Shown in pieces: positions 11,096 to 20,090 of a stretch of DNA of 23,527 bases. The DNA is from a virus. Every line of letters starts with the position of its first letter. The first letter of the stretch is position 1. The notes under the pieces are model-generated. The model was not told the origin of the DNA, ran no database searches, and saw only the letters and a list, made by a program, of their open reading frames with translations. Both the position numbers and the translations under genes were made by a program. The stretch is from positions 1-23,527 of IMG/VR virus record IMGVR_UViG_3300045738_001353; one strand, written 5' to 3'.

Positions 11096-11130
11096 GTACC
11101 TTAAGTACCCTTAAGTACCCTTAAGTACCC
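11096..11130. repeat. Tandem 10-bp repeat, candidate operator
   Basis: Three exact copies of TTAAGTACCC (11101-11130) preceded by a partial copy (GTACC, 11096-11100). The 10-bp period is one helical turn, so a protein could bind all copies on one DNA face. It sits in the only sizeable non-coding gap of the late region, just upstream of the terminator and scaffold gene in the direction of transcription. A regulator site or anti-termination site is plausible. No promoter-like hexamers are clear. Confidence 0.6.
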
Positions 11131-11962: not shown

Positions 11963-12693
11963 CCTCCTAGTTCCTCGATTGTTTGTCTAAGCCCCTTGTT
12001 AATATCACACTCCTCCTCCCAGGCTATCTTATACACAACCTGGTGGTCGTGGGTTGTTAAATACTCGATCCTGCTCGCCTGCGAGCGAACCTTCGCCTTC
12101 AACGTCAAGATTCGATCCTCCAGGGAATGTGACAGCCCGATTTTATTCTCCAGCAACTCGTTCCTACATTCCCGTGCCATCACTTTGCGGACGAGTTCAT
12201 CATAATCACCTTGAAGATCACTCAACTTCATCTTGACCTGCCGCGTAGCCTCCCTCGCCCGATCCAGCGCCCCCCAGTTTCGATCCACCTTTGAAAGCTC
12301 ATTGCGGGCCTCGCGGCGCTGCGTCGTCCTCTTTTTCAGTTCCTCCCTTAACTGTTCCCTTTCCGCAGCCCACTTCTCTTTTTCCTCCACCATCTCTCGA
12401 TACTTCCTTTCCCAATGCCGTGCGTCCCGGTTCTTTTTATCCTCCCACCGGCCGCCTTCTCGTTTTTCTGGAACTACAACGCCTCGCCGGGCGGTGCTGG
12501 CAGCACCTCTCAAACCGTTGACGATGTGGTCGTTCACCTTTTCCATTTCATACGCCTTGCCGTCGCCCGCCAACGCCACCCCCATGTGCATGGCGGCACA
12601 TTCAAAACAAAAGTTTCCATCGAGCAAATCCTGGCCCTCTCTCATAGCGTCGGCCCCGCATCCCTCACAAGAAGATAGCGAACACGAGTTCAC
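11959..12693 (-). CDS. Zinc-ribbon and coiled-coil protein next to terminase
   Basis: A 244-residue protein with a GTG start sharing its G with the TAG stop of the large terminase (TAGTG). The N-terminus has Cys at 4, 9, 12, 29 and 32 (CEGCGADAMRE; FCFECAAMH), consistent with a small zinc ribbon. Residues about 80-220 are almost continuously charged and helical (REMVEEKEKWAAEREQLREE and similar), a long coiled coil. The portal gene is expected at this place in most tailed phages, but this protein has neither portal length nor motifs. A DNA-binding packaging accessory or an internal virion protein is conceivable; I do not recognise the family. Confidence 0.6.
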   Translation of the reverse strand: MNSCSLSSCEGCGADAMREGQDLLDGNFCFECAAMHMGVALAGDGKAYEMEKVNDHIVNGLRGAASTARRGVVVPEKREGGRWEDKKNRDARHWERKYREMVEEKEKWAAEREQLREELKKRTTQRREARNELSKVDRNWGALDRAREATRQVKMKLSDLQGDYDELVRKVMARECRNELLENKIGLSHSLEDRILTLKAKVRSQASRIEYLTTHDHQVVYKIAWEEECDINKGLRQTIEELGG

Positions 12694-14351
12694 TACCCAA
12701 ATCTTGACGGCGCGGTGAACCCGCCCGTGGCCATCATGTTCATCTCGTCCACATAATAAATGCCGCGCTTGAACAAGTACCGATCTGGGTCGATGCAGTC
12801 CTTTAGCGCCCCCTTCAAGCCGTCCAGGCCGGTATATTCCGCGTAGGCATAGATGCTCTGCTCACAATCGCTGCTGATAAAAAACTTCGGATGGTTCATG
12901 GCGCTCACCTCTGCGGTTTCCTCATAATCAAACATATCGTTGATGACCGTGATCCCGTCCTCAATGTCGCCCCCCGGCCCGGCGTGCCATATAACACTCT
13001 CACCGATCACGTTCCCATCGGCGTCCCGCTGTTCCTCGTCCATCATAGAGATGATGCTCTGGCCCTGCTTGAGATTGGGAACCTCCGCACCCCCGCCCCT
13101 GGGGTCTATAACGCGCTCAAAGATTTCCTCATCGCCCTCCAACTTCTTGAGCAACTTCTTATAGGAGAGAATGGACATCCCCAGCGGCGTCTGCGCCGGG
13201 CCTGGCTTGCCATCCGGCTTGTCGCTTGGAAACGCCCACTCGCCGTAGGTTTTGCGATCCGGCCACTCCCGGTATAGAAAGACACGATCCAGGTCATCTA
13301 TGATATACCATTTGATGAACCAGTTTTTTGTCCCGCCAGGATCACACGAACAGTAGCGTGTTCCCTTGGTGGGAACGTCCTTCGGCTTGACCACATGGAC
13401 GTTCTCGTTGAATCGCGGGAACGCCTTGCCCTCCAGGCGCTCGGCCCAGCCGTAGGCGCGGATCTTAATTTCCTCGGTGGTCTTGCCGTCGAGCATCTTG
13501 ACGATGTTTTCGTAACCACCAAACGGGTTCCACAAGCTGTGAAAACAGATAATGGCCGCGCTGCGACTGCGAGCCTCCAGGATATAGGGCATCTCGCCCG
13601 GCTTGCAGCCTGGAACATGGATGTTGTCCTGGTCTAGCAACTCGGCCGGGCGACTCTCGACCACGCGGGAGCCAGCCAGATATTCCTTGACCGTCATGGT
13701 ATAGCCCCTGACCGGCGTGAAGGTGATGATGAGTTTTCCGCTGCGCGTCACGATGCGGTAGCGCAACGTCTTAACGAGTTCGTAGCCGATCAACTCGTCG
13801 GCCCAGATCATATCAAGTTCGCCACCCTCAAACACTTTCTCGTCCATGCTATAGTTTAGGAAGCGAGTCCTGGATGAATTTGGCAGGATGAAAACCTGGT
13901 CGGCGAATCCCGCCTTGTCCGTCCACCGGACGTTGGTCGTCTGGCCCTGCTTGCCGATGTTGCGCCATTGCGGCGGCAGATAGCGGCGCACCACCGGCTG
14001 CTGCATTTCTATGGAGGAGGGAAGTGTCGTGTGCAGACACCAGGTATTCGTATATTCATCGCAGGCCATCTTGTTGGCCACGGTGCGAGCGGCGTACTCG
14101 GTCTTGCCGCTCCTGTTACCGCCCAGGATCAGCAACTCGTCGTACTGTTCCAGGAGCCGGTCGGCGTCCGCCCACGGGTCAAGTTTGACGCCGTACTCCA
14201 GCGGATCGTCCTTGGCCAGTTGAATGACGCGCTCGCGCTTCTGGATTTCATGGAGCAGCGCCTCGCTCCCGCGCTGTTCAGCCAGCGCCAACATTTCTTC
14301 CTTGGTATATTCTGCTATGCCGGGATAAGGCGTCTGTTGGAATTCACTCAT
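12693..14351 (-). CDS. terL: Terminase large subunit (packaging ATPase/nuclease)
   Basis: A 552-residue protein. The Walker A motif GGNRSGKT is at 77-84 after LLIL, and the Walker B-like LDMIWADEL at 179-187 has the acidic pair needed for ATP hydrolysis. The C-terminal RNase H-like nuclease domain begins near 333 with YCSCDPGGTKNW (Asp 337 a probable metal ligand). These are the hallmarks of TerL, which docks on the portal, pumps DNA into the procapsid and cuts it. The length is normal. It overlaps the small-subunit gene by eight bases. The portal partner is not encoded in the window. Confidence 0.92.
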   Translation of the reverse strand: MSEFQQTPYPGIAEYTKEEMLALAEQRGSEALLHEIQKRERVIQLAKDDPLEYGVKLDPWADADRLLEQYDELLILGGNRSGKTEYAARTVANKMACDEYTNTWCLHTTLPSSIEMQQPVVRRYLPPQWRNIGKQGQTTNVRWTDKAGFADQVFILPNSSRTRFLNYSMDEKVFEGGELDMIWADELIGYELVKTLRYRIVTRSGKLIITFTPVRGYTMTVKEYLAGSRVVESRPAELLDQDNIHVPGCKPGEMPYILEARSRSAAIICFHSLWNPFGGYENIVKMLDGKTTEEIKIRAYGWAERLEGKAFPRFNENVHVVKPKDVPTKGTRYCSCDPGGTKNWFIKWYIIDDLDRVFLYREWPDRKTYGEWAFPSDKPDGKPGPAQTPLGMSILSYKKLLKKLEGDEEIFERVIDPRGGGAEVPNLKQGQSIISMMDEEQRDADGNVIGESVIWHAGPGGDIEDGITVINDMFDYEETAEVSAMNHPKFFISSDCEQSIYAYAEYTGLDGLKGALKDCIDPDRYLFKRGIYYVDEMNMMATGGFTAPSRFG

Positions 14352-15054
14352 TTGATTCTACCTCGATGGCCTCCGCTTTTTTCTCGGCAAGCTCCTCCTT
14401 GAGCTTGTTTACAAAATCATTCATCTCGTCGGCTGTCGGCTCGACCCTCGCGTTGGCGTGGATCACCGTCGGCATTCCCTCGAACTTGAGCAGATGATCG
14501 GAGGCGATGCCCCAGGCAATCATAATCTTGTCCGGCGAGATTTGCCCTTTTTCCAGCGCCTCAATAAACCGATCCCCAGTCAGGCGGTGGATGTAGCGCG
14601 TTTTTTCGAGCGCACGATGGCGGTAGGAGGACAGGCGGCCGTCCGCGTCGGCGCGGCGCTCCAGCGCGGCCACCGTGTTGCGGCTCACCCGCATCAGGCG
14701 GGCGATGTCGTGGTGCGAGACTTGCGGATCGGCGATGAGATCGAGCATCAACTCAACCTTAACCTTGTCCCGTTCCAGTATCGCGCCGCTGAACTTTGAG
14801 GATTCCCTGACCTTATAGGCCGCCAGGATCGACTTGGTTTGCTCAAGCTGCTGCTCCAACGGGAACATTTCCGCTTGGGATTCTTCCAGCGGGTTCTCGC
14901 TATGCTTGGCCACCGGGGCCAGGCTTTGCTGTTTGTCTGCTATTACTGCCTCCTTACTTAAACTTCTTCTTCTTCTTGTCGCCGTAATTATACGGCGTCT
15001 CCCTGTTGGGATCGCCACCGCGCTTCTCCCAAAAACGCTTGCAACCCGCCTCAA
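14344..15054 (-). CDS. terS: Terminase small subunit-like DNA-binding protein
   Basis: A helical protein with an HTH at VSHHDIARLMRVSRNTVAALERR-like positions (about 113-135), a charged coiled C-terminal part, and placement directly before terL, as expected for the small terminase that recognises phage DNA. The start is uncertain. The longest frame (236 residues) uses TTG at 15052-15054, next to the repeat array, and its first about 37 residues are Arg-rich and unconvincing. A strong AAGGAGG (14949-14955) lies five bases before an in-frame ATA at 14941-14943, with no ATG, GTG or TTG close by. A non-canonical ATA start, giving about 199 residues, is possible. The HTH and position are seen; the function is inferred. 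Confidence 0.72.
   Translation of the reverse strand: MRRVASVFGRSAVAIPTGRRRIITATRRRRSLSKEAVIADKQQSLAPVAKHSENPLEESQAEMFPLEQQLEQTKSILAAYKVRESSKFSGAILERDKVKVELMLDLIADPQVSHHDIARLMRVSRNTVAALERRADADGRLSSYRHRALEKTRYIHRLTGDRFIEALEKGQISPDKIMIAWGIASDHLLKFEGMPTVIHANARVEPTADEMNDFVNKLKEELAEKKAEAIEVESNE
14980..14997 (-). promoter_or_regulatory. Palindrome carrying a TATAAT box before the terminase genes
   Basis: CGCCGTA and TACGGCG form a perfect 7-bp inverted repeat around ATTA. Read on the minus strand it contains TATAAT (14987-14992), the bacterial -10 consensus, about 32 bases before the AAGGAGG at 14949-14955. No good -35 hexamer is found 16-18 bases upstream. A repressor- or activator-controlled late promoter is plausible, with the dyad as operator. 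It could also be just an mRNA hairpin. Confidence 0.45.
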
Positions 15055-15087
15055 TCGACACTTTCAAGCTGCGGGACTCTCGTTCCA

Positions 15088-16353
15088 TGGTCGCTCTGTC
15101 TTTCTGGTTCTCTCTCAACATATGGCTCGCTCGAAGGGAGTGGTTCTCTCTGCTTTACTGGCTCGCTCAATCAATATGGTTCTCACAGGTATTATGACTC
15201 GCTCTAAGGGAATGGTTCTCTCCCTGTGCGTGGCTCGCTCTGGGTTCTTGGTTCTCTCTCAACATATGGCTCGCTCTGCGATCGTGGTTCTCTCGGTGAG
15301 CGTGGCTCGCTCCAGAAGGATGGTTCTCTCTGGCATTATGGCTCGCTCGAGTGATGTGGTTCTCTCCAAGATTATGGCTCGCTCTCGGATGATGGTTCTC
15401 TCCAAGGGCTTGGCTCGTTCGTACTTCTTGGTTCTCTCAGGGTGCATGACTCGCTCGGCGATCATGGTTCTCTCAAGTGTGTTGGCTCGCTCATGCAAAA
15501 TGGTTCTCTCTGATTAGCTGGCTCGCTCTATAGTGTTGGTTCTCTCAAACGTTATGGCTCGCTCTGGGATGGTGGTTCTCTCTGATTAGCTGGCTCGCTC
15601 TATAGTTGTTGGTTCTCTCAAACGTTATGGCTCGCTCTGTGATGGTGGTTCTCTCCTTGAGCTTGGCTCGTTCGGACCTCTTGGTTCTCTCCGGGTGCAT
15701 GACTCGCTCGGCGATCATGGTTCTCTCAAGTGTGTTGGCTCGCTCATGCAAAATGGTTCTCTCTGATTGGATGGCTCGCTTCTGCCTTCTGGTTCTCTCA
15801 AGACCTTTGGCTCGCTCCTTATCTGTGGTTCTCTCTAATTTTCTGGCTCGCTCAGGGTTCATGGTTCTCTCTGAATATATGGCTCGCTCCTTATCTGTGG
15901 TTCTCTCTAATTTTCTGGCTCGCTCAGGGTTCTTGGTTCTCTCTCAACATTTGGCTCGCTCTGCTATCTTGGTTCTCTCGGCTGGTGTGGCTCGCTCCCT
16001 GACTCTGGTTCTCTCATCCATCGTGGCTCGCTCTACGGTCATGGTTCTCTCAACCCGAGTTGGCTCGCTCTCGTTTCATGGTTCTCTCAAATTCCTCGGC
16101 TCGCTCCTTGCTTATGGTTCTCTCGGGTGTTTTGGCTCGCTCATAGTGCGTGGTTCTCTCTGACACGTTGGCTCGCTCACCAGTCATGGTTCTCTCGTAC
16201 TACTTGGCTCGCTCCGACTCATTGGTTCTCTCGGGTATTTTGGCTCGCTCAAGGGCGACGGTTCTCTCGGCAATTATGGCTCGCTCTCGATTCTTGGTTC
16301 TCTCAAAGGGCTTGGCTCGCTCAGGAATAATGGTTCTCTCTCCTTTTATGGCT
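15088..16353. repeat. TIGR-like array: alternating 10-nt repeats with 8-nt spacers, 36-nt period
   Basis: On the plus strand two repeats alternate without exception: type A TGGCTCGCTC and type B TGGTTCTCTC, each followed by an 8-nt variable spacer (10+8+10+8 = 36). I count 35 type B repeats (first 15105, last 16331), 34 full type A repeats (first 15123, last 16313), and degenerate A copies at both ends (15088-15096 and 16349-16353), with 70 spacers. Two spacers are 9 nt (15601-15609, 16052-16060). Variant repeats are few: TGACTCGCTC at 15195, 15447 and 15700; TGGCTCGTTC at 15411 and 15664; single changes at 15177, 15772, 16097 and 16259. The array touches the stop of the tas-like gene. A 36-nt unit with two repeats and two spacers is the design of TIGR arrays, processed into 36-nt dual-spacer guides. 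Transcription on the minus strand, behind tas, is inferred. Confidence 0.88.
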
Positions 16354-17142
16354 TTAAGCGACCGCCACCTTATGCGCGTGTCCCAATATCCCGACGGGAT
16401 AAGGCAGAGGCGGTTCTTTACCGAAATGATTCCTATAAGCCGTCTCATGCCAATGAGACAAAAACAGCTTTACCGCATAACGACTCGCCCTGGCCTTGAT
16501 GTGGCCCGGTGGCAGTTTGCCTGTGGAGTAATGCTTCCACGCCTCGGTCGTTTTTTTAACTCTGGCCGCGCCCTCCTTTGCCTGGGCAGCGAACGCGCCC
16601 GCATCGTTTCTTTGATCCTCCAGCACCCTTCGACTAGCGTAGATCGCACCGTAAATATCCTTCGGGCGAGTTTGTTGCTTGATGAAGCTCTCCCCTATTT
16701 TCCAACAAAGGCATTTCAGCTTCGCGTTCCAGGGCCTCTTTGTTTTTTTCTCCCATTTACGGGTCGGATCAAGCCCTGCAAAGGCCCAGATATGACCCAC
16801 CGTGGGCGCTTTCTCGATGTCGATGTGAGAAAGCAAACCGGAAGCTAACACCGGCCCTATGCCGCAAATCGAGAGCGACCATTGGCCGGTCGACTGCCCT
16901 TTTGCGTATCTGCCGAGGGCCAACTTGATCTTGCCCTCCAACTCCTTGTTCACTTCTCCAATGTACTCAAGTAGGGAGTGAGGCTCCCCGCTGTCCAACG
17001 TACTACGAACCTGGGCGTTCGCCCTGATTCGTTCGTCTTGAATCTGGTAGTATGTGTCTACCAGGAATCGCGCCTGATCCACCGACATAAACTGCGCCGA
17101 TGCGATCAAGTCCTTGTTTATTCTTAACCATGTTTCTTTCAT
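16354..17142 (-). CDS. tas: Tas protein, nuclease-less (TasA-like), IS110/Nop-related RNA-guided protein
   Basis: A 262-residue protein. Residues about 17-80 are a long helical, probably coiled-coil region. GIGPVLASGLLSHID (94-108) and FAGLDP (121-126) are the helix-hairpin-helix signature of the IS110/IS116 transposase C-terminal domain (Transposase_20). A second half follows with KLKCLCWKIGESFI (141-154), IYASRR (167-172) and GHIKARASRYAVKLFLSHWH (213-232). The IS110 N-terminal DEDD nuclease domain is absent, and there is no HNH or RuvC. No inverted repeats or insertion-sequence ends flank it. The gene abuts the alternating-repeat array, matching TIGR-Tas loci, where Tas binds 36-nt guides to find DNA. 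It is expected to bind rather than cut. A 46-bp AT-rich gap upstream may hold its own promoter. The alternative is a domesticated transposase fragment, which the array makes unlikely. Confidence 0.85.
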   Translation of the reverse strand: MKETWLRINKDLIASAQFMSVDQARFLVDTYYQIQDERIRANAQVRSTLDSGEPHSLLEYIGEVNKELEGKIKLALGRYAKGQSTGQWSLSICGIGPVLASGLLSHIDIEKAPTVGHIWAFAGLDPTRKWEKKTKRPWNAKLKCLCWKIGESFIKQQTRPKDIYGAIYASRRVLEDQRNDAGAFAAQAKEGAARVKKTTEAWKHYSTGKLPPGHIKARASRYAVKLFLSHWHETAYRNHFGKEPPLPYPVGILGHAHKVAVA

Positions 17143-17188: not shown

Positions 17189-17515
17189 TTATTTACTTCT
17201 TTCGGCGGCCACCATTATCCTCTGTCGCCTCCCGCTTTCGCCTGGGCGTTTTTCGCCCGTGTAGTTAATCAGCCCCTTTGTGTGGAGCGCCTTGTACCTG
17301 GCGGTGATGCTGCTGTAGGAGAAGCCGGGGAACTCGCCCCTCACCTCGTCGCTGATGCAGGGTTGAATTTTCGTAATGACGCCCAGCACCATTCCCTCCA
17401 GGCGCGTGGGATCGATGGATTGAGCCGCCTCGATTGAAGTATCCGGCCCCTCGGCCCGGTGCAGATGCTTTACCGGCGTCTCAAAATCAAACTCTAGCCA
17501 TTCCCTATCCATCAT
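17189..17515 (-). CDS. Small winged-helix phage protein
   Basis: A protein of 107-109 residues; two adjacent ATGs (17515 and 17512) follow the TGA of the upstream gene (TGATG), the first sharing one base. The segment PDTSIEAAQSIDPTRLEGMV, then ISDEVRGEFPGFSYSSITAR, KALHTKGLINYTGEKRPGES and a basic end, is the pattern of a small winged-helix protein common in phage genomes: SIEAA helix, recognition helix near 65-85, wing with GLI.Y.G.RRP. It probably binds DNA as a regulator. It is the last gene of the replication block before the 46-bp gap and the tas gene, so it could influence expression of the TIGR locus (speculation). Confidence 0.65.
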   Translation of the reverse strand: MMDREWLEFDFETPVKHLHRAEGPDTSIEAAQSIDPTRLEGMVLGVITKIQPCISDEVRGEFPGFSYSSITARYKALHTKGLINYTGEKRPGESGRRQRIMVAAERSK

Positions 17516-17811
17516 CAATCAAACCAATCGGTGAACCTGTCCTTCTTGAGTAAGTCCTCTGGGTTCCTCTCCGCCCTTATCTTGGCCACCTCAATCTGCG
17601 CGGCGCTGAACAAATAGGCCGTCTCGTTTTTCCCATCCGAATCTTCTAGGATCGTGAAAACATATTCCTTGTTCGCGCCAAAGACGCGCCCCCTGTTTTC
17701 AACCTTGAACAGTCGTCCGTTTTTTACTTTCCTAATCTTGGGAACCAGGAGGCCGTCGCGCCTAGCTAGACCTGTGTTTGCCCAACCTCTTCTTCTTTTA
17801 GGCCATCTCAT
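17515..17811 (-). CDS. Hypothetical basic protein
   Basis: A 98-residue protein. The ATG at 17811 is chosen because it sits inside the end of the DUF551 gene, with AGAAAG upstream; a longer frame extends to 17874 without better support. The N-terminus is strongly basic (MRWPKRRRGWANTGLARRDG). The middle is a small beta-rich region (GRLFKVENRGRVFGANKEYV, FTILEDSDG), and the C-terminus is helical and charged (AAQIEVAKIRAERNPEDLLK). It may be a nucleic-acid-binding accessory of the replication operon. No family is recognised. It overlaps the upstream gene by 14 bases and the next by one. Confidence 0.55.
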   Translation of the reverse strand: MRWPKRRRGWANTGLARRDGLLVPKIRKVKNGRLFKVENRGRVFGANKEYVFTILEDSDGKNETAYLFSAAQIEVAKIRAERNPEDLLKKDRFTDWFD

Positions 17812-18067
17812 TTTTTTTCTTTCTGTTTTTTGGCGGAGGTGGAATTTCCGCCCAAAAGTCAACGTCCTTAACATTGATGTAGCTCGGCTCTTGATCTACG
17901 CCGTTGTTGAAGATCATAAACAGGTCGAGGCAAAGTGAACCAACCCACACCAGGATCGAATCCGTATTATCCTCTTGAAGAATTTCCATGATGAATACTT
18001 CCTTGTGTTTCTCTGGCAACCGCTCACTCGTTGGTATCCATTTCCACTCGGCGTTTTTTTCGGTCAT
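17798..18067 (-). CDS. DUF551-family protein
   Basis: An 89-residue protein. WKWIPTSERLPEKHKEVFI near the N-terminus and DVDFWAEIPPPP near the C-terminus are the two conserved ends of the DUF551 family, small proteins frequent in phage early regions whose function is unknown. The start chosen is the ATG at 18065-18067, which shares ATGA with the stop of the helicase gene; a longer TTG frame begins at 18079. The tail after the conserved domain is Lys-rich. It belongs to the replication operon and is probably co-translated with the helicase. Confidence 0.75.
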   Translation of the reverse strand: MTEKNAEWKWIPTSERLPEKHKEVFIMEILQEDNTDSILVWVGSLCLDLFMIFNNGVDQEPSYINVKDVDFWAEIPPPPKNRKKKNEMA

Positions 18068-19503
18068 ATTTTGCCCCAATCACCGTCTTTTATGATTTGT
18101 TCCTCCTCGTCCTGCGCTTCCTTGTTTTCAAAGTCATCGGACACAAAGGTCGCGCACCATCTCTCGAAGTCGAAATGAACGACGCCGGTTGGGCCGCTGC
18201 GCTGCTTGGCGATAATCAAATCGGTTTTTTTGGTGTAATATTCCTTCGACCCTGGGCGCGGCGGGTTCGGGTCTTTCTCCTTGCTCACAATCTCATGGAG
18301 TAGCCCGACAAAATCGGCGTCCTGCTCGATCTGGCCGGATTCGCGGAGATCGGCGAGGTTCGGCGCGTCGTACTTGCTCTTGGCCGAGTTGCGGTTGAGT
18401 TGAGCCAGCGCAAGCACCGGCACGTCCAACTCCTTGGCCATCGCCTTGAGTCCCTTGCTGATGTCGGCCACCTCGTCCTGGCGACTGAAGTAGCGTTTTT
18501 TATCCAGGCCAGTTGAGAGTTGAAGGTAGTCCACCACGATCAACTCTATCCCGTGAAGCAGTTTCACCTGGCGGGCCTTGCTCCGCACTTGCTCGATCCC
18601 CAGGCCGGGCCGCTCGTCCACCCAGAGTGGGATGCCCTCAAGCTCCTTCGCCTTCGCTAACAAATTGGGGATGTCCTTGTCATCGACGTAGCCGGTGCGA
18701 AACTTAACCATGTTGGATTTGGTCTGACTGAACAGCACGCGGCTGCCCAGTTCGCGGGCGCTCATTTCCATGCTGAACACCATGACCGGCGAGGGCGGGT
18801 TCCTTATGACTTGGTTCACGGCAATGTTCATCCCTATCACCGTCTTGCCGGAGCCAGGCCGCCCTCCAATCACGATCAGATCGCCCCCGACCAGGCCGCC
18901 CATTTTTCTGTCCAGAAACTTATAGCCTGTGGGCAAGCCTAGTAACTGCGTCTCGCCCCGGCTATAGGCGTTGACCAAATTCAAGGTTGGCTCGAACTCG
19001 GTTGGGAGGCGGATCAGCTTGCTCGATGTCTCGGCGTTTATCGCCATGAGTTGACCCTCGGCTTCTTCGAGCAGCCGTTTCGTTTTGCCACTTTGTGACC
19101 CCAATTTTTCGTACAGTTCGGTCAAAAACCTACCCGCTTTGCGGCGCAACATCGCGTCCCTGGCCGCCGTGAAATAATACGGCATATTTTCGGCGCTCGG
19201 CACGCTATCCTGCAGGACGGTCAATAACCCAATCCAGCCTTCGGGCGGAGTGTCTCCGTATTCGCCCTTCTTGAGCAGCATCGACAGTTTCAATAAATCC
19301 GGCTCTTTGCCGTCGGAAATCACATCGACCAACGCCATCCAAACGGCCCTGTGGTGGGGGTGAGAGAACACCTCCACCGCTTCCGGGCCTAATTCATCGA
19401 AGATTTCTGACACCTTCGTTACGCAATCCAAAAGGCAACATCCCAGGAGGCCGCGCTCGGCTTCCTCGTCCACAACGGTTTCCAGTATTACTTTTCCATT
19501 CAT
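18064..19503 (-). CDS. Replicative DNA helicase, DnaB type
   Basis: A 479-residue protein with the two-domain DnaB layout. The N-terminal helical domain (about 1-110; EEAERGLLGCCLLD) resembles the DnaB N-domain that binds loader and primase, followed by a linker helix near 115-160. The RecA-like ATPase core has GRPGSGKT (Walker A, 214-221), MVFSMEMSARELGSR (motif H2, about 241-255), LIVVDYLQLS (Walker B, 321-330), VLALAQLNR and LRESGQIEQDADFV (about 376-390). It unwinds DNA at the phage fork. It overlaps the initiator gene by four bases (ATGA), so the initiator is the probable loader. No primase gene is recognised nearby. Very secure identification. Confidence 0.92.
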   Translation of the reverse strand: MNGKVILETVVDEEAERGLLGCCLLDCVTKVSEIFDELGPEAVEVFSHPHHRAVWMALVDVISDGKEPDLLKLSMLLKKGEYGDTPPEGWIGLLTVLQDSVPSAENMPYYFTAARDAMLRRKAGRFLTELYEKLGSQSGKTKRLLEEAEGQLMAINAETSSKLIRLPTEFEPTLNLVNAYSRGETQLLGLPTGYKFLDRKMGGLVGGDLIVIGGRPGSGKTVIGMNIAVNQVIRNPPSPVMVFSMEMSARELGSRVLFSQTKSNMVKFRTGYVDDKDIPNLLAKAKELEGIPLWVDERPGLGIEQVRSKARQVKLLHGIELIVVDYLQLSTGLDKKRYFSRQDEVADISKGLKAMAKELDVPVLALAQLNRNSAKSKYDAPNLADLRESGQIEQDADFVGLLHEIVSKEKDPNPPRPGSKEYYTKKTDLIIAKQRSGPTGVVHFDFERWCATFVSDDFENKEAQDEEEQIIKDGDWGKI

Positions 19504-20090
19504 TTTATTAGGTTTTCAAGTTGAGCATCCAATTTTTTCCTTTTATCGAGCAAACTCCACCAATCAGCACGCTCTGATGAGTCCTCATCCGCTTCTGGCG
19601 TTGCGCCGGGATCGCCAGGGTGGTTTTGCATACGCCTCCAAATATGTTTTTGGAGTGACTCAATAGGATAAACGTCCTTGCTAGAAAGTGTGTCCGGCTC
19701 CGTTATATTTCCGTTATTACTGTTTTCTTTATAGGGGCCTGCCAACTTGGCAGGATTAACTGCCAACTTTGTTACCAACTTGGCAGGATTAACTGCCAAC
19801 TTTGTTACCAACTTGGCAGCTATTTGGAACTTGTTAACATCGTCCTGGATCAGAAGCCCCTGTTCCACCAAACATCTAATTTTTCTAAATAGTGTACGCT
19901 CTGAAAGCCCGGTCATTTGCATGAGAGTGTGGCGTTCGGCCCAAACTTTGCCCGTTGTGGTAAGGAAACACATGGCAACCAGGAGCAACTTGGCGCTTGG
20001 GTCGCTTTTCCAAACATCTTCGCCGTCCTTCTTTGGAACCTTTGATTTAACAGGCTGATAGAACGCTAGTTTTACGAGTTGTAGGCTCAT
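19500..20090 (-). CDS. Replication initiator/helicase-loader-like protein (lambda O-like organisation)
   Basis: A 196-residue protein using the ATG at 20088-20090; a TTG frame extending to 20165 is less convincing. Residues about 30-95 form a winged-helix domain (SAKLLLVAMCFLTTTGKVWA; LMQMTGLSERTLFRKIRCLV; EQGLLIQ), the type found in phage replication proteins that bind origin DNA. A 33-bp DNA repeat then encodes two copies of an 11-residue unit (KLVTKLAVNPA). The C-terminal part is polar, Trp-containing and possibly disordered, a plausible helicase-interaction region. It lies immediately before the DnaB gene. The arrangement of an initiator gene with repeats inside it followed by an AT-rich stretch is like lambda O; direct homology is not claimed. 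Confidence 0.65.
   Translation of the reverse strand: MSLQLVKLAFYQPVKSKVPKKDGEDVWKSDPSAKLLLVAMCFLTTTGKVWAERHTLMQMTGLSERTLFRKIRCLVEQGLLIQDDVNKFQIAAKLVTKLAVNPAKLVTKLAVNPAKLAGPYKENSNNGNITEPDTLSSKDVYPIESLQKHIWRRMQNHPGDPGATPEADEDSSERADWWSLLDKRKKLDAQLENLIK
19739..19819. repeat. Iteron cluster, candidate replication origin
   Basis: Two exact 33-bp units (19742-19774 and 19775-19807) and the first 12 bases of a third (19808-19819). Each unit contains TTGGCAG GATTAA CTGCCAA, a perfect 7-bp dyad with a 6-base centre. An extra CTGCCAA at 19739-19745 gives the palindrome CCTGCCAACTTGGCAGG (19738-19754). In all there are five TTGGCAG half-sites in alternating orientation. An AT-rich stretch follows in the gene's direction (about 19695-19733). 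Repeats plus AT-rich DNA inside the initiator gene match the layout of lambda ori. Confidence 0.65.

What the first reader, a model, noticed from the sequence alone, without database searches (positions are those of the whole stretch)
15088..17142. A phage-borne TIGR-Tas locus: alternating dual-repeat guide array next to an IS110/Nop-like protein
Seen: two distinct 10-nt repeats alternate perfectly for about 1.27 kb with 8-nt variable spacers (36-nt period, about 70 spacers), abutting the stop of a gene with the IS110 C-terminal signature (GIGP...FAGLDP) and no catalytic domain. Known: TIGR-Tas systems consist of arrays processed into 36-nt guides with two spacers, and a Nop-domain Tas protein related to box C/D RNPs and IS110 transposases, some fused to HNH or RuvC. 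Inference: this is a nuclease-less (TasA-like) example, placed between replication and packaging genes. Its biological role in a phage (inter-phage competition, host gene control or self-regulation) is open.
Basis: partly seen in the sequence, partly recalled or inferred. Interest (0 to 1): 0.97.

Follow-up and report, generated by a model that had tools for sequence, protein, structure and literature searches.

The report
Phage TIGR-TasA RNA-guided DNA-binding locus
This stretch of a phage genome encodes a compact RNA-guided DNA-binding system of a recently described family (TIGR-Tas, version without a DNA-cutting part) with an unusually long set of 35 paired guides, carried as an optional module that sister phages lack and perhaps used to interfere with rival mobile elements.

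Summary
On the minus strand, tas (16354-17142, 262 aa) runs directly into a dual-repeat array (15088-16353). It holds 35 units of edge GAGCGAGCCA, 8-nt spacer A, loop GAGAGAACCA, 8-nt spacer B. Membership was tested: NCBIfam TIGR-Tas model E=3.6e-57 (194 bits, cut-off 100); PDB sequence hits to TasR and TasH; an AlphaFold model matching TasH (Z 19) and TasR (Z 18) over residues 18-262, without their nuclease domains. It is therefore a TasA.

Added here: 41 of 44 viral Tas relatives have a recognisable adjacent array on the same strand. In a close-relative group, spacer pairs across the loop repeat stay together (394/450), pairs across the edge repeat much less often (182/503), so the inherited unit is the tigRNA. 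Sister phages (terL up to 87% identical) lack the module at the same place, so it is mobile cargo.

Targets: none for this array. In one isolate (KBS 96) a related prophage's array matches a different, satellite-like prophage: one unit 16/16, another 14/16 910 bp away (joint chance about 1e-4). This suggests non-cutting interference between mobile elements, but it is a single case. New member of a known kind.

The parts
16354..17142 (-). tas gene (TasA type): 262-aa solo Nop-domain protein, no nuclease domain
15088..16353 (-). TIGR dual-repeat array, 35 units (70 spacers): edge GAGCGAGCCA - 8-nt spacer A - loop GAGAGAACCA - 8-nt spacer B
16349..16353 (-). 5' truncated edge repeat AGCCA, directly after the tas stop codon
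15088..15096 (-). 3' terminal edge repeat GAGCGACCA; its last A is the first base of the next gene's ATG; no terminator found after it
14954..15088 (-). 44-aa conserved small gene (FWEKRG...YNYG) after the array; sister phages have its homologue at the same place before terS
14344..15054 (-). putative small terminase (HTH) gene as the longest open frame; right flank of the insertion (true start probably further down)
12693..14351 (-). large terminase subunit; 87% identical in sister phages that lack tas
17189..17518 (-). 109-aa gene before tas (phrog_1123, function unknown); no homologue found in the sister phages
17515..17874 (-). 119-aa gene also present between dnaB and the terminase genes in sister phages; left flank of the insertion
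18064..19503 (-). DnaB-type replicative helicase

Best explanation
The locus is a phage-borne TIGR-TasA system. Proposed mechanism: the minus-strand transcript that starts at or before tas continues through the array; each edge repeat is cut to give 36-nt tigRNAs (half edge, spacer A, loop, spacer B, half edge). A TasA dimer holds one tigRNA by the shared GA...CCA ends of its two repeats and opens a 16-bp DNA site in which spacer A pairs with one strand and spacer B with the other (site = A followed by the reverse complement of B). With no nuclease, it acts by occupying and bending the DNA, most likely blocking early transcription or replication of competing mobile elements (other phages, prophages, satellites). 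Shown here: anatomy, Tas family and fold, absence of a nuclease, the A-loop-B unit as the inherited unit, presence/absence among sister phages. Inferred from the published TasR/TasH/TasA work: processing and tandem-spacer DNA binding. Inferred from one related prophage: the kind of target.
For: Family and fold. Array grammar; near-identity with SpTIGR repeats. Unit of inheritance: in close relatives, pairs across the loop repeat stay adjacent 394/450, across the edge repeat 182/503. Repeats constrained, spacers free: 22/128 against 1/160 differences in internal duplications (Fisher p 8.5e-8). Geometry A + rc(B): follows from the 8-nt 3' overhang and contiguous 18-bp target in PMC12045711. Mobile cargo: sister phages have dnaB, terS and terL in the same order without tas, and the tas relatives lie in phages with no terminase or capsid match to this one. 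Kind of target: in isolate KBS 96, unit TAAAAGCA/TTCGATTC of a related prophage matches 16/16 in codons of an AlpA-like gene of another integrated element; a second unit matches 14/16 910 bp away. Expected 0.021 exact matches for all six units and 0.005 for the neighbour.
Against: No target was found for this phage's own array. The KBS 96 total of sites with up to 2 mismatches (14) does not exceed the reversed-pattern controls (17), so the case rests on one exact match and one close neighbour. Halomonas NO4 gave none. In E. coli, TasR gave no protection against phage or conjugation (PMC12045711). PADLOC models do not hit the protein.
Confidence: 0.6

Rival explanations
1. TIGR-TasA regulates the phage's own genes: tigRNAs guide TasA to sites in the phage genome as a timing switch.
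For: The array lies in an operon with replication and packaging genes, and TasA cannot cut, so self-binding would not be lethal.
Against: 0 units with a site of at most 1 mismatch in their own contig, across the TIGR phages whose contigs were wholly or largely held; shuffled pairings give about 1. None in the window. Spacers differ strongly between close relatives.
Confidence: 0.12
2. tigRNA-TasA represses host genes (anti-defence or host takeover).
For: Not excluded: the host of this phage is unknown. Published TIGR loci are mostly in mobile elements and the authors list gene regulation and counter-defence as possible roles (PMC12045711).
Against: In the one isolate host tested over its whole genome (KBS 96), the best site lies in another mobile element, not in a housekeeping gene. 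Total near-sites equal controls.
Confidence: 0.2
3. It is an IS110-family transposase remnant beside an unrelated tandem repeat.
For: Pfam Transposase_20 hit and a PHROG named transposase.
Against: NCBIfam IS110 model 20.7 bits against cut-off 140, while the TIGR-Tas model scores 193.8 against 100. No N-terminal DEDD domain. 41 of 44 relatives keep an adjacent array on the same strand.
Confidence: 0.01
4. The array is translated as a repeat protein.
For: The 18-nt step keeps frames open locally (ORFs of up to 227 aa).
Against: 7-21 stop codons in each of the six frames, none significantly depleted (lowest fraction of shuffles with as few: 0.12); two 9-nt spacers shift the frame. In internal duplications the spacers change freely while the repeats do not.
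Confidence: 0.01

Closest known systems
SpTIGR-TasH of Salicola phage CGphi29 (NC_020844; PMC12045711)
   Same: Phage-borne; 36-nt units; 8-nt spacers; repeats AAGCGAGCCA / AAGACAACCA against GAGCGAGCCA / GAGAGAACCA here; same Nop fold (Z 19.3).
   Different: CGphi29 carries an HNH nuclease domain and a shorter array ending in a terminator; here no nuclease, 35 units and no terminator.
TIGR-TasA (e.g. Flavonifractor plautii FpTIGR; PMC12045711)
   Same: Solo Nop protein with a dual-repeat array.
   Different: FpTIGR has 9-nt spacers; typical arrays have 5-15 units. FpTasA sequence was not compared here.
TaTIGR-TasR (PDB 9mty)
   Same: Nop domain, phmmer E 4.9e-13, Z 17.7; both repeats end in CCA.
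   Different: RuvC nuclease fused; repeats start with UG where ours start with GA; 9-nt spacers.
IS110/IS621 bridge-RNA recombinase
   Same: Shares the Nop-like RNA-binding fold (Z 12.9).
   Different: DEDD catalytic domain missing here; a single bridge RNA instead of an array.

Membership tests
TIGR-Tas | Tas protein with a Nop domain recognised by sequence and fold | tested here: met
   NF052498 193.8 bits, cut-off 100; TasR and TasH by phmmer; Z 19.3 and 17.7
TIGR-Tas | Array of two distinct alternating 8-12-nt repeats with short variable spacers, about 36-nt unit, next to tas | tested here: met
TIGR-Tas | Edge and loop repeats share box C / box D-like ends (CCA at the 3' end; exact letters may diverge together) | tested here: met
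   Both repeats GA...CCA; the ends change together in relatives (CCG/CCG, TCA/ACA, TTG/CTG). The UG start of TasR arrays is absent, as in SpTIGR
[quoted passage not shown]
   AGCCA at 16349-16353
TIGR-Tas | Array ends with a truncated edge repeat and a rho-independent terminator (typical, not universal) | tested here: not met
   Last edge overlaps the next gene's ATG; no minus-strand terminator-like site found there. Described as typical only, so membership is not affected
TIGR-Tas | Processing into 36-nt tigRNAs bound by Tas | not testable with these tools
   Needs small-RNA sequencing; indirect support from linkage of spacer pairs
TIGR-Tas | Tandem-spacer dsDNA binding | not testable with these tools
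   Needs biochemistry; candidate natural site only in a relative
TasA subclass | No HNH or RuvC nuclease domain | tested here: met
   Model residue 18-19 aligns with TasH residue 65-66 and TasR residue 109; only 17 residues precede
IS110 transposase | Full IS110 protein with N-terminal DEDD domain | tested here: not met
   NF033542 20.7 bits, cut-off 140; protein starts at the Nop part

The most novel reading that the evidence does not exclude
Phage TIGR-TasA systems are programmable, non-cutting repressors aimed at rival integrated elements. In Acidobacteriaceae isolate KBS 96, a prophage TIGR array matches the early operon (AlpA-like and replication genes) of a separate satellite-like prophage, which would be the first natural TIGR target described, as far as the papers I could search show. 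The window's array would serve the same purpose against unsampled competitors.
Probability: 0.4. Interest if true: 0.85.

Novelty: new member of a known kind. Interest (0 to 1): 0.5.

Why it matters
The natural targets and purpose of TIGR systems, above all those without a nuclease, are stated as open in the founding paper. This locus adds a phage TasA with one of the longer arrays and shows that the module comes and goes between close phage relatives. Comparative data on its relatives give independent, evolutionary support for the paired-spacer unit, and they yield a concrete, testable natural target in a named bacterial isolate (KBS 96).

Tried and rejected
1. Self-targets: none with at most 1 mismatch in the window or in the other TIGR contigs. 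2. Targets in 0.95 Mb of sister and terminase-related phages and in 3.1 Mb of viral and prophage DNA: no excess over shuffled pairings in the expected geometry. A weak early excess (p about 0.05) vanished with more data. In one search the opposite geometry (rcB+A) gave 61 units against 49 +/- 6 in 25 shuffles; it is not the published geometry, one of several comparisons, and was not followed. 3. Cluster scan of all arrays: top scores equal shuffled controls. 4. A unit conserved across L013-L020 searched in all of IMG/VR: 32 exact hits, near the roughly 30 I estimated for chance (collection size assumed), with no companion sites. 5. Spacer A/B similarity or complementarity (palindromic targets): none. 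6. Halomonas NO4 and Propionivibrio: no convincing sites in regions around integrase and capsid genes. 7. Relatives of the KBS 96 replication gene in viral contigs: none. 8. Plasmid-borne relatives: none. 9. Known RNA families at the locus: none. 10. PADLOC defence models: none. 11. L029 and L030: the period-30/36 repeats that the script found (e.g. CGGCTACGGC) are not of the TIGR type and were dropped; L022 and L052 have tas but no array was detected.

Full report
OBSERVATION. The array is real and regular. On the + strand TGGTTCTCTC and TGGCTCGCTC alternate without exception, 69 repeats with 8-nt spacers apart from two of 9 nt. TRF reports the same array. The gene beside it, tas, is on the minus strand, and the array follows its stop codon at once. 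On that strand the repeats are GAGAGAACCA and GAGCGAGCCA. A truncated repeat AGCCA directly follows the tas stop, and a last copy GAGCGACCA overlaps the ATG of a 44-aa gene. This gives 35 units and 70 spacers.

NOT A CODING REPEAT. All six frames of the array contain 7-21 stops, none significantly fewer than with shuffled spacer letters, and the 9-nt spacers shift the frame. Parts of the array have been duplicated since; in these copies the spacers differ at 22 of 128 positions and the repeats at 1 of 160. So the repeats are constrained and the spacers are not.

THE PROTEIN. It passes the curated TIGR-Tas model of NCBIfam (193.8 bits, cut-off 100), while the IS110 model stays far below its cut-off. 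Sequence search of the PDB returns TasR (E 4.9e-13) and TasH (E 5.7e-9) first. The AlphaFold model from 45 sequences (pLDDT 87.7) matches TasH (Z 19.3) and TasR (Z 17.7) above IS621 (12.9). The match begins at model residue 18-19, corresponding to residue 65-66 of TasH and 109 of TasR, that is, after their nuclease domains. It is a TasA.

RELATIVES. IMG/VR gave 44 relatives of 34-64% identity, and the bacterial and archaeal genomes 24. Forty-one of the 44 viral loci have a recognisable dual-repeat array near tas on the same strand. Repeats are mostly of the form GA....CA, CG or TG, and both repeats of a locus share their ends. The SpTIGR array of Salicola phage CGphi29, whose processing was shown experimentally (PMC12045711), has nearly the same repeats.

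THE UNIT. In eight closely related phages I followed spacers from array to array. If two spacers flank a GAGAGAACCA-type repeat they stay neighbours in 394 of 450 cases; across a GAACGAGTCA-type repeat, in 182 of 503. Arrays therefore recombine in the edge repeat, and the pair A-loop-B is inherited as one thing. This is evolutionary evidence, independent of RNA sequencing, for the tigRNA unit and it fixes which repeat is edge and which is loop.

MOBILE CARGO. Phages with terL up to 87% identical to the window (L070-L085) have dnaB, small genes, terS and terL in the same order, but no tas and no array. Their dnaB-terS interval is 0.1-2.5 kb and holds other small genes (single-stranded-DNA-binding protein, thermonuclease-like protein and others, named from sequence). 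The tas relatives lie in phages without detectable terminase or capsid similarity to the window. So tas plus array moves as a module. No terminator follows the array, so it probably shares a transcript with the packaging genes; this is inference.

TARGETS: METHOD. The published cleavage pattern (8-nt 3' overhang, contiguous target, one spacer on each strand) implies a site reading A followed by the reverse complement of B. I searched such 16-mers, with mispaired spacers as control.

TARGETS: RESULTS. No self-targets were found in the window or across the TIGR phage contigs, and no excess in this geometry in 3.1 Mb of viral and prophage DNA. Scanning all IMG/VR with one conserved unit gave a chance-like result.

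ONE CANDIDATE TARGET. The isolate Acidobacteriaceae KBS 96 carries a prophage with a tasA 59% identical to the window's and a six-unit array (L007 = L047). I searched its 6.69-Mb genome with all six units. Unit TAAAAGCA/TTCGATTC matches exactly at 6,329,962-6,329,977. The site lies near the 5' end of an 86-codon ORF, AlpA- or excisionase-like by my reading of the sequence. This ORF is part of a small integrated element with integrase, XRE-type regulator, small terminase, HK97-type capsid and protease, but no large terminase, portal or tail gene that I noticed. Unit CTCCAGGT/ACTTACAA matches 14/16, with both mismatches at the outer edge, 910 bp away inside the next gene. Two further units match 13/16 within 2.4 kb. 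With a Markov model of the genome the expected number of exact matches for all six units is 0.021, and of sites with at most 2 mismatches from the other five within 1 kb, 0.005. None of 265 mispaired sets reached this in the region, though the region was picked because of the exact match. The whole-genome number of near matches (14) is not above reversed-pattern controls (17), so everything hangs on this one cluster. I hold it as a candidate.

READING. The best-supported account is an RNA-guided, non-cutting DNA-binding module carried by the phage as optional cargo, probably aimed at competing mobile elements. Mechanism from homology: strong. Role: moderate, from one related case. It is a new member of a known kind, with an unusually long array and no terminator.

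Noticed in passing
L259+L260, about 6,323,000-6,332,300 of KB906767.1 (KBS 96): Small integrated element with integrase, XRE regulator, AlpA-like gene, replication-like gene, TerS, HK97 capsid and protease, and no portal, large terminase or tail gene noticed: looks like a capsid-forming satellite (PICI-like) in an acidobacterium. Another capsid-integrase pair lies at 6.195-6.198 Mb.
   Followed up: partly
window 19742-19819: Perfect 33-bp tandem repeat (2.4 copies) inside the replication-initiator-like gene, encoding a repeated PAKLVTKLAVN motif.
   Followed up: no
window 11099-11130: Perfect 10-bp tandem repeat CCTTAAGTAC (3.2 copies) between two genes.
   Followed up: no
dnaB-terS interval of L075, L079, L083, L085, L144: Hot spot of variable small genes in sister phages: single-stranded-DNA-binding protein, thermonuclease-like protein, a 335-aa phrog_5931 protein; the TIGR module occupies this spot in the window.
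   Followed up: partly
L022 and L052: Tas homologues without a detectable dual-repeat array nearby; could carry stem-loop arrays or guides elsewhere.
   Followed up: no
L069 and L068: Tas relatives with 36-nt arrays in contigs assigned to archaea (Fervidicoccus, Aenigmatarchaeota), with CGAGCC-type edge repeats like those of the bacterial phages.
   Followed up: no
L032, L040, L056, L060: Arrays with 34-nt period and an 8-nt loop repeat (GAATTTCA, GATTTTCA, GATGTTCA, GACGTGCA): a shorter-loop variant.
   Followed up: no
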